Made by a program: the position numbers and the translations under genes. A DNA stretch of 64,000 nucleotides, from contig NZ_AOLN01000010.1 in NCBI RefSeq assembly GCF_000337815.1, positions 1 to 64,000 of the forward strand, written 5' to 3'. Below are positions 1 to 8,675 of this stretch, piece by piece (within the stretch, counting starts at the first letter, position 1; every line of letters starts with the position of its first letter). The notes under the pieces are model-generated. The model saw nothing but the letters and a program-made list of their open reading frames with translations, made no database searches and was not told where the DNA came from. The DNA comes from Haloferax mucosum ATCC BAA-1512 (GTDB lineage: Archaea; Halobacteriota; Halobacteria; Halobacteriales; Haloferacaceae).

Positions 1-19
1 GCAAAGTAAGATGTAGTTG

Positions 20-802
20 ATGCCCAGGAAATCTGACATCAATCGCAGAAGTGTGCTAAAAACAATCGGTGCTGCAGGCAGTGCAACGCTTCTTTCGTCC
101 ACAGCAAGTGCTTCAGGTGACACCCCTGAGTCTGATCGAGATATTGAGGAATTATCTCGCTCAGAGATTGATCAGACGATATCTATGATTCAGGCCGATA
201 GTGAGGCTAACAAACTTTTGGACTATATCTCTGACCATGGTTGGGGTTGCAATCTCAAGGATGGAACGTACAGAAAAATCGTTGTCCCAGATGGAGATGA
301 CTTTATAATTGTCGCGGTAATGCTATCAAACGTTGAAGAAGACGGTTCTGATGGTGTGTTCCGTTGGACTAGTACAGACGAAGAGCCGACAAGTGTTAAT
401 TTAATTAACACTTCAGAGCATACAGAAACTTCGGCTGTAGTAATTGATGGAACCGTAAAAGAGGAAACAAGCACGTTTGGGCATCCTGATTCCGATGATA
501 TCACTGATTCTGGTGGTATGGTTCAACCGATGGATAACACTGCGCCCCCTGGCAGTGGCGGTGTCTGCTACCGATGTGGTTGTGAAACCGTGGTATCCCG
601 CAACTGTACGAGCTATAACTGGGATTGTTTAATTATCGCAGGTAGCGTTTGGGGAGCAAGCTGCGCTGTAGGCAAGATCGGGTGCTTCCTATCTTCAAGT
701 GGTAATCTTGCGCTGTGGATCGTTGGCGATAACTGTAATATTTGTGACAATTACAAAGTATCGAGGGCTGAAATTGGATACGCCTGTACTCACGAGGACT
801 GA
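20..802 (+). CDS. Halocin C8-like precursor (Tat-exported, cysteine-rich)
   Basis: A 260-residue protein. A twin-arginine signal (NRRSVLK plus a hydrophobic stretch, residues 9-32) is followed by an acidic pro-region (about 33-178). The C-terminal ~80 residues hold ten cysteines (183, 186, 188, 196, 203, 215, 222, 239, 242, 256) after a PPGSGG linker. Halocin C8 precursors have the same plan: a Tat leader, an N-terminal part that acts as immunity protein, and a released C-terminal peptide of about 76 residues with ten cysteines. The likely role is therefore a secreted microhalocin plus self-protection, inferred from architecture rather than close identity. The TTG at 17 is in frame, but ATG 20 puts the Arg pair at the usual place. 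The promoter lies mostly outside the window. A decayed IS6-type element begins 18 bp after the stop. Confidence 0.72.
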   Translation: MPRKSDINRRSVLKTIGAAGSATLLSSTASASGDTPESDRDIEELSRSEIDQTISMIQADSEANKLLDYISDHGWGCNLKDGTYRKIVVPDGDDFIIVAVMLSNVEEDGSDGVFRWTSTDEEPTSVNLINTSEHTETSAVVIDGTVKEETSTFGHPDSDDITDSGGMVQPMDNTAPPGSGGVCYRCGCETVVSRNCTSYNWDCLIIAGSVWGASCAVGKIGCFLSSSGNLALWIVGDNCNICDNYKVSRAEIGYACTHED

Positions 803-820
803 ACTCAGGAACGGACAAAT

Positions 821-1302
821 GACACTGTCTATATAGGACCAAGCAGCTCGAAGAGCTAGCGACCTATACTACTCTCAGACCTGCTCAGAGAGACAGAATC
901 GGTTCTGTATCTCCTCAGCGTAGAACGTTCGTCCCAAGCAATTTTCAAGTAGGCACCTCGGTTAGCTGACAGGTTGCAGTCGACGAGGCTGCTGTCAAAC
1001 TCAACAGAGAGTAATCATGGTTATACGCTGCAGTAGACCTCGACAGAAAAGTGACTTTTGACGTTGCGTTATTTGAACGTCATTAGACTAATTTAGCTGC
1101 TGCGTTTCTACATGGACTCACGGAGAAACAGGACTGTTCAGAGGCGATGTTTCTTGTCGATGTATTTGGCTATTGGAATTCATGCGTATGTCTGCTGAAT
1201 CTCTGCCAATGGCTTGCAGTGTTCATCTATTACTATCACTTTCACCGACCGAGTCAGTTACTAAACCGAAGAATATCAGTTCTGGCGATCAACTAGACAG
1301 TG
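821..1302 (+). mobile_element. Degenerate IS6-type insertion element
   Basis: The left end reads GACACTGTCTATATAGG (821) and the right end AACTAGACAGTG (1291-1302). These match the terminal repeats of the two elements at 60.3 and 61.5 kb. Between about 1024 and 1210 one frame reads like the catalytic core of haloarchaeal IS6-family (ISH) transposases: YAAVDLDRKV, then FERH followed by a stop codon, then AAAFLHGLTEK and MFLVD.FGY. A weaker match to the C-terminal YYHFHRP region follows near 1235. The length (about 480 bp against about 800 for an intact copy), the in-frame stop and the missing segments make it inactive. No target duplication is visible. Confidence 0.75.
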
Positions 1303-1311
1303 ATAGTCAGG

Positions 1312-1680
1312 TTATAATGTAGCTGAGACGGAACGTTCACGCCGCTGTTCAGTGTATATTTTGAGAGTGATCCCAGACAAGCATAACCCTATACCATATA
1401 TCAATATTATTATTGATACACGTAGATCTGATCCTATCGGGAGGTCAGAGGTAACTCCTAAAAACGGTGCTAGGGTAATCGTGAGTACTAGTAGTGCAAT
1501 TGATGAATTGCTGGGTTTTTCTAGGGGAATTCGATACTGAACTAATAAAGATACACCGAGTAAATATGTTACAAACACCACTAAACCCAGCTTCAAATTC
1601 CAGAATGAACCATAGTACATGAGAAGTACCATAGCTGATGCGGACAATATTCCGAAAATCGGTGTTGGTATCTCGTCCAT
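1312..1680 (-). CDS. Small four-helix membrane protein
   Basis: A 122-residue protein with four predicted membrane segments (about 7-26, 30-48, 61-78 and 88-108) and a short basic C-terminal tail (EQRRERS). No family recognised. Its stop codon lies ten bases beyond the end of the degenerate IS element, so the element sits between this gene and the halocin-like gene, and the two genes converge. Small membrane proteins beside bacteriocin genes are often immunity factors, but nothing here shows that. The codon usage is AT-rich like the rest of the first 2 kb, unlike the GC-rich DNA that follows. Confidence 0.55.
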   Translation of the reverse strand: MDEIPTPIFGILSASAMVLLMYYGSFWNLKLGLVVFVTYLLGVSLLVQYRIPLEKPSNSSIALLVLTITLAPFLGVTSDLPIGSDLRVSIIILIYGIGLCLSGITLKIYTEQRRERSVSATL

Positions 1681-1990
1681 ATTTGACAGTGTTATTGCTT
1701 CAATATATAACTGGAGGATAGATGTCGGAAATGCCTCTTTACTGGTGGAAGACGGTACCTCTGCTCTGCTGAAATCTTCTTTACACCTGGTGACTTATTG
1801 AGGTTCGAATTTCCAACAGCATTCGCAGAAACCCCTGGAATAGCAACTCTTCACAATGTTTACGTTGAACGTTTTCAACGGAGACGAACTACTGGTACGC
1901 ATTCAACGATGACTTCAACACCATTGAGAACGCCTACCGACTTGATGCTTCAACCACCACCCATCAGTCACAGTAACTAAATAGACGCGA
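1681..1990. other. AT-rich gap, no gene seen
   Basis: No convincing reading frame in either direction. The right part runs into the broken 3' end of the DUF7342-like gene. The composition resembles the neighbouring IS remnant more than the GC-rich DNA after 2.4 kb. Confidence 0.4.
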
Positions 1991-2342
1991 CCTACGCACG
2001 CTTCGTAGTCTGCGATTTGGTCAGTCATTCACGAATTCGTTCTTGGAGTTCTCGACACTGTGTTCAGTCTGGAACCGCTCGATTCGCCGCCACTCGAAAG
2101 GCATCGTTGCGCTCGTAGGTAGCTGGGACGTCGCATGCTTTCTTCACGACGCCCAGTTCTGTGAGGAAGCGGAGGTACTTCTGTGCGGTACCGGGCGTGA
2201 CTTCTACTCGGTCTGCGATTGCAGCGACACGCAATGGCTCAGCGAGCTGGAGGGCGACATCGTATATGTTTTCGACCGCTGTCCGACGATTGAGCACTGT
2301 ATCCCACTCAGCCGCGAAATCTATCGACGGTGGATCGCTCAT
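1991..2342 (-). pseudogene. Broken winged-helix regulator (DUF7342-like)
   Basis: The first 80 residues from ATG 2342 are an intact winged-helix domain (AVENIYDVALQL, IADRVEVTPGTAQKYL, LGVVKK, TYERND) typical of haloarchaeal DUF7342 regulators. The frame then ends early at 2064. The expected C-terminal half is still readable in pieces: RRIERFQTEHSVE in a second frame, then LQERIRE and MTDQIADYEA in further frames towards 1995. At least two frameshifts and a stop therefore separate it from a full-length gene. An expressed 92-residue DNA-binding remnant remains possible. It lies 33 bp downstream of the gene ending at 2376 and was probably co-transcribed with it. Confidence 0.65.
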
Positions 2343-2375
2343 GATGCTCGTAAAGAAATTCGTTTGAGAGGCTTA

Positions 2376-2756
2376 TTACCCTTCCTGTGGGAGGCCCGTC
2401 GAGCCACCCGACCCCGACGCTGCCCCCAACGTCGTCAACGAACTCTTGAGACTAATTGCGAGCTGAATCTTGATGATCAGGGTCCACGCGTTAATCGTTA
2501 GGACGACGGTTGCAGCCGCCGACTGCACGGACGCTGCGTCGTCGAGACGGTCCTCAAACACACTGGCGTCGTTGGCAGCGACTCGCCCATACGCGGTTAT
2601 CGCCCGCAAGTAAGCGACGAGAGCCCAGGCGCGGACAGCGGGGTCGTCGTCACCGGCGTTCGCTGCCGACGACCGTACGGCCGAGGTGACGTCGCGAAGG
2701 CCGGCCTGCAGATCCCCGACGACATGCTCGGCTGTGTCTTGATCCGCAGCACCCAT
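2376..2756 (-). CDS. Conserved-looking hypothetical protein
   Basis: A 126-residue acidic, alanine-rich protein predicted to be mostly helical. A central segment (RAWALVAYLRAITAYGRV) and a hydrophobic stretch (TVVLTINAWTLIIKIQLAI, about 85-103) could pack into a bundle or a single membrane helix. The tail is Gly/Ser-rich. No family recognised. It is immediately upstream of the broken DUF7342 regulator on the same strand, and divergent from the large repeat protein starting at 2843, with which it shares an 86-bp promoter region. Its base composition is GC-rich like the downstream genes. The call rests on codon character and context only. Confidence 0.5.
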   Translation of the reverse strand: MGAADQDTAEHVVGDLQAGLRDVTSAVRSSAANAGDDDPAVRAWALVAYLRAITAYGRVAANDASVFEDRLDDAASVQSAAATVVLTINAWTLIIKIQLAISLKSSLTTLGAASGSGGSTGLPQEG

Positions 2757-2842
2757 CGATCCGAGTGCTTCGAGCGCTGCTTTTTTTCAATCGCAACAAG
2801 GCCATCACATTGTTTATTGTCAGCGGAATCTGATATCGGGTA

Positions 2843-5680
2843 ATGAACGGCGACGAGCCTCCCGCTGAAGCCACCCCTACCTCCTCCCCTCCGGCCAACG
2901 CTGAGATCGTGGAGGCGCTCCTCAGCGCACTCGATTCCGATACCGACGCGTTCCGCCAGTCACACGTCGACAGCATCCTGTCGCTGCTGTCGGACAACGC
3001 TGACGACGATAGTCAGTCGGCACTCGCCGACGCTCTCTTTGCAGCCATCGTCGATGCAATCAAAACCGGACAGTTCGAACAGCTCTCCGTTCCCCTCGAC
3101 CGTTTCGAGTCCATCGTCGCGCACACCCCTCGCGCTGACACGCTTCGACAGCTACTAGCTCGGACGCTGGTGCAAGCAATCGGGTATGACGGGGCATCAG
3201 GACGCGTCGAATCCATGGCGACCCACCTCGAACGCATGGAGTCACTGGCAGATGAATACGACAATGACGACAGGACCCAATATCTTCATTCACGCGCACT
3301 CTACACCGCTGCATATCATGAGGGAGAGGCCGGTCGATTCGACGACGCTCAGCGGTCACTCGACCGGCTGGAAGCCCACGCCCGTGCGCACCCGGACCAC
3401 AGAGGAGTTCAGTCCCAGTTCGCAACAGGCCTGTTCAATGCCGTGTATCATGCGACCGACGCCGACCAGCTCGACGTGCTTCAGACGCACCTTGACCGCC
3501 TCGATGCCCTCGCGATGGAGTATCCGACCACCGACGAGATACAGCTCCAACTCGCCAACGGACTGTACAACGCTGCAGGTGCGGAGGGCAAAGCCGGAGC
3601 ATTCGAGCGCCTCGACGCCCGCATCGACCGACTCGAACAGCTGTGCGACGCCACCCCGACTGAAGCGATTCACGTCCGCTATGCGAAGGGACTCTATAAC
3701 GCAGCGACGTACAATGCGAGCGCTGGGCGGTTCGAGGCGGTTCAATCCTACCTCGACGATCTCGACTCGGTCGTCTCCACGTATCCCAACAACGAAGCGA
3801 TTCAAACCCGCATCGGTGAGGCGCTCTATCACACCAGCTACTACCGGGGCGAAGCTGGTCGGCTCGACGCACAGCGAGCGGACCTTGAACAGCTCGCGGA
3901 ACTGGTCTCCGAGAATCCAGACACCGATGCCCTCCAGCGCAATCTCGCCAAGAGCCTGGCCAGTGCTGCCACGCACGCTGGGAGCCACGGCCAGTTCGAG
4001 GAACTCGACCACCTTCTCGACCGGCTCGAGACACTGGCCGACGACCAGCCCGACCACCAGGAGATACAGTCGAGGCTCAGTCTCGCGCTATTCAACGCCG
4101 TGACCGACGCGGGCCAAGCCGGTCGGTTCGAACACCAACGAAGACTCCTCGACTGGCTCGAAACCCTCGCTGAGAGCCACTCTGGCATCGAGAAGATTCA
4201 CGTCAGACTCGCAAAGGCGACCCTGAACGCGACGCAGAATCAGGGGGATGCCGGGCTACTCGTCGGTCTCCACGTCCATCTCGACCGTCTCGAAGCACTC
4301 GTCGCCGACTTCCCGAACAACGCAGAGATCCGAAGCGCGTTTGCCACCTCGCTGTACAACGCCGTCACGTTCATGGGAGAGGCCGGTCGGATGGACGACC
4401 TCACGACGGTCCTGTCGCGTCTCGAATCCGTCACCGAAGCCTCGACCGAGTTCGAGGCGGTACAACGCCAGTTCGCCGACACCCTCCGCGTGGTGGTGTA
4501 TTACATGGCAACCACCGGCCGATTCGAGGACGGACAGTATTACCTCAACCGCCTCCACCGCCTCGCCAGCAGCCATCGTGACGATACCGAAATCCAGTGT
4601 CACTACGCAAGAGCGCTGGAGACGGCTATTTCCCACGAGGGCGACGCCGGTCGAGTCGACGTGCTCCCGACGCGGCTCGACCAGCTCGAATCCATCGCAG
4701 CGGCCACTCCCGAGAGCGAGCGAATCCAACGTACGTTCGCTTCGGGGCTGCAGACTGCGATCCTCACCCAGCGGGAGGCAGGCCGATTCGAGCACGACCG
4801 GGACTATTTCGACCGTCTCGAAGCGCTCGCACGCGAACATCCGACCGACGAGGAGATACAGGTCGTCCTCGCGGACGTTCTCGCGAACGGCGGTTCGCTC
4901 GACCAGCTCGAATCACATGCTGGTGCATATCCCGCCGTCTCAGGCGTCCAGGCAGCGTTCGCGACGGCGCTCTGGAACGCCACATTCCACGCGGCCGAAG
5001 CCGGACGGACCGATGTTGTGGACACACAACTGGACCGTCTCGAAGCGCTGGCGACGGTGTATCCGAACGTCGAGACGGTACAGGAGCGACTCTCGAAAGC
5101 AGTCTTCACCACCGCACGATACCAAGCTGAGGACAGCCGATTCGACGCGTTCGAGCGGTCAGTCGACCGCCTCGAAACACTGGCTGCCGACAATCCCGCC
5201 ACCGATGCGATCCAGTCTGATTTCGCGCAGGTTCTGTTCAACGCGGTCTTTGCGTCGAGTGGTGCTTGGCAGTTCGAAGACGCAGGGGATTACCTCGACC
5301 GGCTCGAAGCCCACGCCACAGACCATCCCAATGCCGAGGAGATTCAGTCCGAGTTCGGTGCTGGGCTCTGTAAACTCATGGAACGGGAGGCGGCTGCTGG
5401 TCGACTCGACGACTTCCGAACGCGCCTCGACAGGCTCCAGACCCTCGCTCGGGACAATCCCGACAACCAGATGATCCAACGGCGACTCGCCTGGGCACTG
5501 GTTCACGCTATCAAAAATCAGGTGGGGACACCCGGCGACCGTCAGTCGGCTCTCGAACGGCTCGAACTGCTCGCCCACGACTTCCCCGACGACGAGGAGA
5601 TACAGTCACAGCTAACCAGTGCACTCCAGTTCGCTCCATTCGCCGAGTATGACGGGTTCGACGGCCCCTCGTCTACCTAA
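2843..5680 (+). CDS. Giant TPR-like helical repeat protein
   Basis: 945 residues made almost entirely of about 20 tandem units of roughly 43 residues. Each unit carries a GRFE/D...LDRLE(A/T)LA...HP motif followed by EIQ..(F/L)A..L.NA. This helix-turn-helix periodicity resembles tetratricopeptide solenoids. The unit around residues 685-705 is shortened (VLANGGSLDQLES). There is no signal peptide, membrane helix or catalytic motif, so a cytoplasmic protein-binding scaffold is the likeliest role. It starts at ATG 2843, divergent from the gene ending at 2376, and a DUF2262-like gene follows after nine bases, suggesting one transcript. The repeats are divergent, so the array is not a recent expansion. 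Confidence 0.85.
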   Translation: MNGDEPPAEATPTSSPPANAEIVEALLSALDSDTDAFRQSHVDSILSLLSDNADDDSQSALADALFAAIVDAIKTGQFEQLSVPLDRFESIVAHTPRADTLRQLLARTLVQAIGYDGASGRVESMATHLERMESLADEYDNDDRTQYLHSRALYTAAYHEGEAGRFDDAQRSLDRLEAHARAHPDHRGVQSQFATGLFNAVYHATDADQLDVLQTHLDRLDALAMEYPTTDEIQLQLANGLYNAAGAEGKAGAFERLDARIDRLEQLCDATPTEAIHVRYAKGLYNAATYNASAGRFEAVQSYLDDLDSVVSTYPNNEAIQTRIGEALYHTSYYRGEAGRLDAQRADLEQLAELVSENPDTDALQRNLAKSLASAATHAGSHGQFEELDHLLDRLETLADDQPDHQEIQSRLSLALFNAVTDAGQAGRFEHQRRLLDWLETLAESHSGIEKIHVRLAKATLNATQNQGDAGLLVGLHVHLDRLEALVADFPNNAEIRSAFATSLYNAVTFMGEAGRMDDLTTVLSRLESVTEASTEFEAVQRQFADTLRVVVYYMATTGRFEDGQYYLNRLHRLASSHRDDTEIQCHYARALETAISHEGDAGRVDVLPTRLDQLESIAAATPESERIQRTFASGLQTAILTQREAGRFEHDRDYFDRLEALAREHPTDEEIQVVLADVLANGGSLDQLESHAGAYPAVSGVQAAFATALWNATFHAAEAGRTDVVDTQLDRLEALATVYPNVETVQERLSKAVFTTARYQAEDSRFDAFERSVDRLETLAADNPATDAIQSDFAQVLFNAVFASSGAWQFEDAGDYLDRLEAHATDHPNAEEIQSEFGAGLCKLMEREAAAGRLDDFRTRLDRLQTLARDNPDNQMIQRRLAWALVHAIKNQVGTPGDRQSALERLELLAHDFPDDEEIQSQLTSALQFAPFAEYDGFDGPSST

Positions 5681-7387: not shown

Positions 7388-7406
7388 TGTTAGTCGTTTG
7401 CACTCG

Positions 7407-8456
7407 CTACTGCCAAGAGAGACCCTGAGAAACCGTTGGCGGCGCGAGCGGGCTCGACGGAAGCTCACCGCCCGGGTCGGGATCGTTGTATGCCTTCGGA
7501 GCTACGTCATTTGGTGCATTGGGATAGAACAGAGACGCAACTGCGTGGATGTGTTCGCGGCCTACGTCGAGTTCGAATTGCCCACCGCCGAACATCTGGA
7601 TATCATGCTCTCGGCAGTAATCGATTGTGTCGAAGAGCGACTGGACCGAGCCGAATCGAGATGGCTTGATGTTGAGCCACTTCGGTTCCCACGGGAGGTT
7701 TTCGACCGTCTCGACACCTCGAATCGGGTAATCCCACGTCACACGGGCTTTCTCATCTTCGAACAGTGGTCGCGTTTCCTCGTTGATTTCCGGGTCTTCG
7801 ATGAGTGCCTCGGGAAAGCCGTCGATGATTCGCTTGTAAAGTTCTGGATCAGCAGGCTGATCGACTGTCGTCCCGTGGTATTGCCCTTTGAGGTCGAGTG
7901 TTCGGACGGCGTCAGTTGCCGCGAGTCGCTCTATGACCTCTGTAGTCCACTCCGATGTCGGGTCGAGTTTGAACTCTAGCTCAGGGTTGCGGTCGAGCCA
8001 GTCGAGCACGATGTCGCCGGTCGGCGGATCCTCCAGACGCGTACTCACGACGAATCGAACGGGGTCGTACGTGCGGCCGAGGCAATCGGCGAGGTTCGTG
8101 TTGGACTGTTTCAATGCGAGGTCGAGCGCGGCGCTCTCGAACGCCCATTGTCGATAATTATGGAATATCGATTGGTCCGGTTCAGTACCGTGAAAGAGAT
8201 CGATCTCGGATACTTGGCCCGAAAACTCGTCGAGGGTGTATTCACCCGTTATGGGGAAGTCTCCTACGGAACCGTTGAGGGCTTCGTGGGCGTCGTTGTC
8301 GTACGTGACGTCCTCGCCACGCCCGGTTTCGCCATCGCCGTGTAACGAGACGATGGTCGTCGCTCGGGTGAAGCCACTGGACGTGTCCCGCTCGCGCTGT
8401 TCGAGATCGTAGTCCTCTAGTTCGAATTCCAGTTCGGAAACGTGATCGTACAACAT
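7407..8456 (-). CDS. Enolase-superfamily enzyme (MLE/MR-like)
   Basis: A 349-residue protein with the capping domain (about 1-125) and TIM-barrel of the mandelate racemase / muconate lactonizing enzyme group. The expected active-site set is present: Lys163 (FKLDP), metal ligands Asp188 (LDLKG), Glu220 (LIEDP) and Asp242 (WDYPI), and Lys264 (NIKPSR). This fits the dipeptide-epimerase / o-succinylbenzoate-synthase-like branch, but the substrate cannot be read from sequence. The C-terminus (PSSPLAPPTVSQGL) is loop-like. It stands alone, divergent from the YcaC-like hydrolase gene 296 bp away. An IS scar ends 19 bp beyond its stop. Confidence 0.8.
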   Translation of the reverse strand: MLYDHVSELEFELEDYDLEQRERDTSSGFTRATTIVSLHGDGETGRGEDVTYDNDAHEALNGSVGDFPITGEYTLDEFSGQVSEIDLFHGTEPDQSIFHNYRQWAFESAALDLALKQSNTNLADCLGRTYDPVRFVVSTRLEDPPTGDIVLDWLDRNPELEFKLDPTSEWTTEVIERLAATDAVRTLDLKGQYHGTTVDQPADPELYKRIIDGFPEALIEDPEINEETRPLFEDEKARVTWDYPIRGVETVENLPWEPKWLNIKPSRFGSVQSLFDTIDYCREHDIQMFGGGQFELDVGREHIHAVASLFYPNAPNDVAPKAYNDPDPGGELPSSPLAPPTVSQGLSWQ

Positions 8457-8675
8457 CGTGAGTCCTCCTTTGTCCCGACGCCATTAATAAGTGAGAGAGA
8501 CAATCGTAGAACCTGGTAGCATTCCTGTCATCCGCTCCTCTGTTCGGGTCGCGGTGGCCTGACCTTCTGGAGTCAAGGAATGTCCGGTTGGTCAACACTC
8601 AGCGCACGCGTCGGTCCCTTGGGGGGACTCCGAGCGCTGGCATCTACTGTGGCCGTCAGTATGGGATATGGGTTG

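What the first reader, a model, noticed from the sequence alone, without database searches (positions are those of the whole stretch)
20..802. Ten-cysteine halocin C8-like precursor with low apparent similarity to HalC8
The gene has the three-part plan of a halocin C8 precursor (Tat leader, acidic pro-region, ~80-residue core with exactly ten cysteines), but the core motifs (CYRCGC, NICDNYK) are not those of HalC8. It may be a divergent microhalocin with its own immunity region.
Basis: partly seen in the sequence, partly recalled or inferred. Interest (0 to 1): 0.62.

Follow-up and report, generated by a model that had tools for sequence, protein, structure and literature searches.

The report
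Halocin-type toxin precursor, unfamiliar cysteine core
A salt-loving archaeon carries a gene for a secreted protein whose front part is related to the precursor of the antimicrobial peptide halocin C8, but whose cysteine-rich end piece is of a different type, and next to it lies a small membrane protein that probably protects the producer, so this looks like an undescribed branch of archaeal antimicrobials.

Summary
The gene is real: 260 aa, complete, with a Tat leader, an acidic pro-region (net -25) and a 78-residue core holding ten of the eleven cysteines. It is under purifying selection against a 55% identical homologue. It is not a halocin C8 family member by the curated profile TIGR04449 (no hit at E<=10; the HalC8 core hits at 1e-16), and its cysteine spacing differs. 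Yet with the Tat leader removed, its pro-domain family is homologous to that of halocin-C8-like precursors (hhalign 95%, E 5e-8), while the cores do not recognise each other: same precursor chassis, different core. About 20 haloarchaeal relatives share the plan, with 8-12 cysteines, so "exactly ten" is coincidental. A decayed IS6-type transposase separates the pair here. Across 24 loci, pairs with cores 58% or more identical have homologous membrane partners (7 of 7); pairs without core similarity never do (0 of 228). This is what a peptide/immunity pair would show. Antimicrobial activity, cleavage and immunity are inferred, not shown.

The parts
20..802 (+). Precursor gene, 260 aa: halocin-C8-type chassis with a non-HalC8 cysteine-rich core
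   Evidence: Complete ORF; full-length relative 55% identical in G122 and more distant ones in other haloarchaea; codon-position bias 0.31/0.27/0.64
20..115 (+). Tat leader, residues 1-32 (INRRSVLKTIGAAGSATLLSSTASAS)
   Evidence: RR motif plus hydrophobic stretch read directly; PF10518 E=0.0017, below its curated cut-off
116..541 (+). Acidic pro-domain, residues 33-174, net charge about -25
   Evidence: Tat-stripped family profile hits TIGR04449 pro-domains at up to 5e-8, 11 of 25 above all shuffled and reversed decoys; search of 2060 ORFs
143..244 (+). Predicted helix-loop-helix of the pro-domain (residues 42-75, IEELSRSEIDQTISMIQADSEANKLLDYISDHGW), within the stretch aligned with halocin-C8-like pro-domains
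   Evidence: hhalign columns 8-103 cover it. The single-sequence AF2 model puts helices at 47-55 and 62-72 but with pLDDT under 50, so this is only a hint
542..565 (+). Pro/Gly linker APPGSGGV before the core; candidate processing hinge
   Evidence: P..GG or GGG within 16 residues before the core in 6 of 12 family members and 0 of 25 TIGR04449 precursors; cleavage itself is inferred
566..799 (+). 78-residue cysteine-rich core (10 Cys; spacing 2,1,7,6,11,6,16,2,13), proposed mature peptide
   Evidence: Closer relatives share C-x7-C-x6-C-x10/11-C-x6..14-C-x16-C-x2-C-x10..13-C; no cross-match with HalC8-type cores
884..1281 (+). Decayed IS6-type transposase remnant between precursor and membrane-protein gene
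   Evidence: tblastn with a haloarchaeal transposase from L038: 39% over 141 aa plus a second piece, E=1e-25, with stops and a frame change
1312..1680 (-). 122-aa multi-pass membrane protein; proposed cognate immunity protein, convergent with the precursor
   Evidence: 52-54% identical to L032:7386-7751, which lies 17 bp from the homologous precursor in the same convergent order; partner similarity follows core similarity
1703..1710 (-). Candidate TATA box TTATATAT, 22 nt before the ATG of the membrane-protein gene
   Evidence: Same octamer at the same 22-nt distance upstream of the G122 homologue (sequences printed); function inferred

Best explanation
This is a two-gene archaeocin module. 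The precursor is exported folded by the Tat pathway. Its acidic pro-domain, homologous to the pro part of halocin-C8-like precursors, keeps the hydrophobic disulfide-rich core quiet and soluble. An extracellular protease cuts near the Pro/Gly linker and releases a roughly 78-residue peptide that attacks the membrane of related haloarchaea. The small multi-pass membrane protein encoded at 1312-1680 (-) protects the producer. Shown here: the gene anatomy, homology of the pro-domain, non-recognition of the cores, the conserved partner gene and its co-segregation with core subtype. Inferred: export, cleavage, killing and immunity.
For: The pro-domain without Tat is homologous to halocin-C8-like precursors (hmmsearch up to 5e-8 above all decoys; hhalign 94.8%, E 5e-8; 2060-ORF search). 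The 7-sequence family profile reaches the precursor with the exact HalC8 core, G004:C4, at 8.8e-10 over positions 3-138, Tat leader included. A small multi-TM ORF lies within 600 bp in 12 of 21 family loci and 15 of 29 TIGR04449 loci against 0 of 17 Tat-only controls (p=2e-4 each). Partner homology follows core similarity: 7 of 7 pairs at 58% core identity or more, 0 of 228 pairs without core similarity; 9 of 48 core-similar pairs overall, p=7e-8. Distribution is patchy, with one carrier among 170 genomes of its own family, and GC is low (46% and 40% against 59%), as for horizontally moved genes.
Against: No activity, cleavage or immunity data exist for this family. With the HalC8-type pro profile as query the window protein alone scores only 7.8 bits, and the HalC8 precursor's pro-domain scores 4.5 bits against the family profile, within decoys, so the link runs through intermediates. 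The close homologue of the membrane protein is known from only one other genome. Its weaker relatives are orphan chromosomal genes not next to halocins. The IS remnant now separates the pair in this genome.
Confidence: 0.7

Rival explanations
1. It is a true halocin C8 family member whose core has diverged beyond recognition.
For: Homologous pro-domain; both cores are about 78 residues, rather hydrophobic and cysteine-rich, and both start with a short cysteine cluster followed by C-x7-C.
Against: No TIGR04449 match at E<=10 for the window protein or at E<=1 for nine relatives. Core profiles of the two families do not cross-match in 2060 ORFs at E<1, and hhalign gives 0.3%. HalC8-type spacing near 2-7-3-7-13-7-8-8-5 is kept by most TIGR04449 cores examined and is not shared.
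Confidence: 0.3
2. The secreted peptide is a signal and the membrane protein its receptor, not toxin and immunity.
For: A secreted, proteolytically releasable peptide with a co-varying membrane partner also fits a pheromone/receptor pair.
Against: The chassis is shared with precursors of a known antimicrobial; the partners are only about 60-145 aa with no Pfam match above cut-off in the seven tested, so no output domain is seen; several relatives carry broken precursors, as expected for arms-race genes.
Confidence: 0.1
3. The pro-domain gives immunity as reported for HalI, and the membrane protein does something else, such as export or disulfide formation.
For: The pro-domain aligns over the helix-loop-helix region; the title of the 2008 HalI paper names that motif as essential for immunity (cited in PMC11509114; paper not held). 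HalC8-clade loci have no small membrane neighbour.
Against: The membrane protein has one cysteine and no CxxC, so it is not a DsbB or VKOR type oxidase; partners differ between core subtypes, unlike a general export or folding factor.
Confidence: 0.2
4. The locus is a dead remnant: the IS remnant and contig end show a decaying island.
For: Decayed transposase between the genes; broken precursors in some relatives.
Against: Both ORFs are intact with strong third-position bias against the G122 homologues (0.64 and 0.62), and the candidate TATA box is kept.
Confidence: 0.1

Closest known systems
Halocin C8 / ProC8 and NCBIfam TIGR04449 halocin_C8_dom precursors
   Same: Tat leader, homologous pro-domain, C-terminal cysteine-rich core of about 70-80 residues; about half of the TIGR04449 loci examined also have a small multi-TM neighbour
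   Different: Core fails the family profile, different cysteine spacing, Pro/Gly linker, separate membrane partner where the HalC8 clade itself has none
Halocin H4 and HFX_0892 of Haloferax mediterranei
   Same: Secreted precursors activated outside the cell by a serine protease (PMC12893001); proposed here by analogy
   Different: No sequence comparison made here; HFX_0892 releases its active part from the N-terminus, while this core is C-terminal
Bacterial bacteriocins with small membrane immunity proteins
   Same: Works-like comparison from general knowledge: peptide plus a small multi-pass membrane protein specific to the peptide subtype
   Different: Tat export, large acidic pro-domain, archaeal; no homology claimed
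Expanded halocin C8 family of Makarova et al. 2019 (mBio, 10.1128/mBio.00715-19)
   Same: From memory, that survey enlarged the halocin C8 family widely; it may already include this branch
   Different: Paper not held, so overlap could not be checked

Membership tests
Halocin C8 family (TIGR04449) | Core matches the curated halocin_C8_dom profile (cut-off 24 bits) | tested here: not met
   No hit at E<=10; HalC8 core scores 61.5 bits in the same library; nine relatives also without a hit at E<=1
Halocin C8 family (TIGR04449) | Ten core cysteines with spacing near 2-7-3-7-13-7-8-8-5 | tested here: not met
   Ten present but spacing 2-1-7-6-11-6-16-2-13; relatives hold 8-12
Halocin C8 family (TIGR04449) | Tat leader | tested here: met
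   RR motif with hydrophobic stretch in the sequence; PF10518 E=0.0017 though below its cut-off
Halocin C8 family (TIGR04449) | Homologous pro-domain between leader and core | tested here: met
   Family level; the window protein alone is too weak (7.8 bits)
Halocin C8 family (TIGR04449) | Pro-region (HalI) acts as immunity protein | not testable with these tools
   Needs an immunity assay
Halocin C8 family (TIGR04449) | C-terminal core released by cleavage and active against haloarchaea | not testable with these tools
   Needs mass spectrometry and growth-inhibition assays
Peptide/immunity two-gene module | Conserved adjacent gene specific to the peptide subtype | tested here: met
   G122 pair 17 bp apart
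Peptide/immunity two-gene module | Adjacent gene protects against the peptide | not testable with these tools
   Needs expression in a sensitive laboratory strain

The most novel reading that the evidence does not exclude
Haloarchaea use one Tat-exported precursor chassis to carry at least two unrelated disulfide-rich killer cores, each core subtype paired with its own unrelated small membrane immunity protein; the window gene belongs to a second core family absent from the curated libraries searched.
Probability: 0.4. Interest if true: 0.6.

Novelty: new variant of a known kind. Interest (0 to 1): 0.47.

Why it matters
Few halocins are known at sequence level, and PMC11509114 calls C8 the best described. 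A second core family on the same precursor, with a candidate dedicated immunity gene, would enlarge the searchable set of archaeal antimicrobials. It would also make the question of how haloarchaea protect themselves directly testable with a two-gene construct in a laboratory strain.

Tried and rejected
AlphaFold2 without an alignment on the whole protein and on the core: pLDDT 34, unusable, so no fold search was made. No helpful PDB sequence match, no PADLOC match and no PHROGs match of note, no Rfam match in 1-3000. Rejected that the membrane protein is a DsbB/VKOR oxidase (one cysteine, no CxxC). Rejected that the long gap to the membrane gene speaks against a pair: it holds an IS remnant. 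The key survey paper (mBio 2019) and the HalI paper are not held. The hydropathy-based TM detector missed the G122 partner at its strict threshold, so 12 of 21 is a low count. Full scoring was limited to 6 candidates per genome in the class searches with the protein and with A1, so family counts are lower bounds.

Full report
Window 20-802 (+) is a complete ORF of 260 codons with a stop directly upstream in frame. It has a Tat leader, an acidic pro-region of net charge -25 and a 78-residue core with ten of the protein's eleven cysteines; by chance, 10 or more of 11 would fall there with p=3e-5. The window starts at the end of a 222-kb contig, so nothing upstream can be read.

Known libraries do not recognise the protein. 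Pfam and NCBIfam give only weak hits, mostly to Tat signals, while the HalC8 core hits TIGR04449 at 1.1e-16 in the same library. PADLOC and PHROGs give nothing for it. The plasmid relative on pHTS138 is annotated as hypothetical.

Relatives exist in other haloarchaea. The closest, in G122, is 55% identical over the full length; others at 22-33% share the whole plan. A profile of seven finds further members in about 20 genomes of 391 (my count from the listed matches and the proteins read). No other genome among 170 of its own taxonomic family has a match at E<=1e-7. GC of the two genes is 46% and 40% against 59% for the rest of the window. This fits horizontal transfer.

Key test: pro-domain against core. 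Tat leaders were removed and each precursor split at the first cysteine of the core cluster. The pro-domain profile of this family hits 11 of 25 TIGR04449 pro-domains above every shuffled or reversed decoy, best 4.6e-8; profile-profile comparison gives 94.8% probability, E=5e-8. Against 2060 ORFs from the loci held then, all matches of the family pro profile at E<1 are precursors of one or the other type, if one counts L024, whose protein also matches TIGR04449 (G180:C3). The core profiles, in contrast, do not cross: the family core profile finds no TIGR04449 protein at E<1 and the HalC8-type core profile finds no member of this core family; hhalign gives 0.3%. Caveat: with the HalC8-type pro profile the window protein alone scores only 7.8 bits, and HalC8's own pro-domain scores within decoys against the family profile, so the link rests on the families and their intermediates.

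Core anatomy. Most HalC8-type cores have spacing near 2-7-3-7-13-7-8-8-5. The window core has 2-1-7-6-11-6-16-2-13; its closer relatives share 7-6-10/11-6..14-16-2-10..13, and the family holds 8 to 12 cysteines. The G122 homologue has lost one (CNIC to CNVY). A Pro/Gly linker stands before the core in 6 of 12 family members and 0 of 25 TIGR04449 precursors; it is a candidate cleavage hinge.

The partner gene. Window 1312-1680 (-) encodes a 122-aa multi-pass membrane protein. G122 has a homologue (52-54% identical) that converges on the homologous precursor with a 17-bp gap. In the window the gap is 510 bp and holds a decayed IS6-type transposase. Both homologues keep TTATATAT exactly 22 nt before the ATG. 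A small multi-TM ORF lies within 600 bp in 12 of 21 family loci and 15 of 29 TIGR04449 loci, and in 0 of 17 loci with other Tat proteins. Across 24 loci with both parts, all seven pairs of loci with cores at least 58% identical have homologous membrane partners; of the 41 other core-similar pairs only two do, and none of 228 pairs without core similarity do. A partner specific to the core subtype is what an immunity protein would show, and is not expected of a general export or folding factor. Relatedness of whole loci could contribute to this pattern. The HalC8 clade itself has no such neighbour in the loci seen, in line with the reported immunity role of its own pro-region HalI (PMC11509114).

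Mechanism. By analogy with halocins C8 and H4, whose C-terminal parts are released by proteolysis (PMC12893001), the precursor is probably exported by Tat, cut outside the cell near the linker, and its core acts on the membranes of competitors while the small membrane protein protects the producer. Every functional step is inferred.

Verdict. It is a new variant of a known kind. It may overlap the enlarged halocin C8 family published in 2019, which could not be read here.

Noticed in passing
window 884-1281 (+): Decayed IS6-type transposase between the precursor and membrane-protein genes; it explains the 510-bp gap.
   Followed up: yes
L103-L108 (matches near 1440-1920): Orphan chromosomal 4-TM proteins with a G.H.DLP motif, weakly similar (25-33%) to the proposed immunity protein and not next to halocins; a possible ancestor or decoy of the immunity gene.
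   Followed up: partly
L036/L079, L038/L083, L081, L040/L088: Relatives of the precursor broken by stops or truncated, some still next to an intact small membrane-protein gene, as if immunity outlives the peptide.
   Followed up: partly
L044 1498-2718 (-): A precursor with the exact halocin C8 core; HalC8-clade loci L044-L047 and L054 lack the small membrane neighbour that many other TIGR04449 loci have.
   Followed up: partly
L057 2476-2703 and L065 2673-2894: Small 2-3 TM ORFs, homologous to each other, lie divergently upstream of halocin-C8-like precursors instead of downstream.
   Followed up: no
window 2843-5680 (+): 945-aa repeat protein with a DUF6584 match, of unknown role, near the module.
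   Followed up: no
window 7389-8530: Stretch about 91% identical to two unannotated haloarchaeal plasmids (H3, H4), likely a mobile piece; holds a 349-aa ORF without a Pfam match.
   Followed up: no
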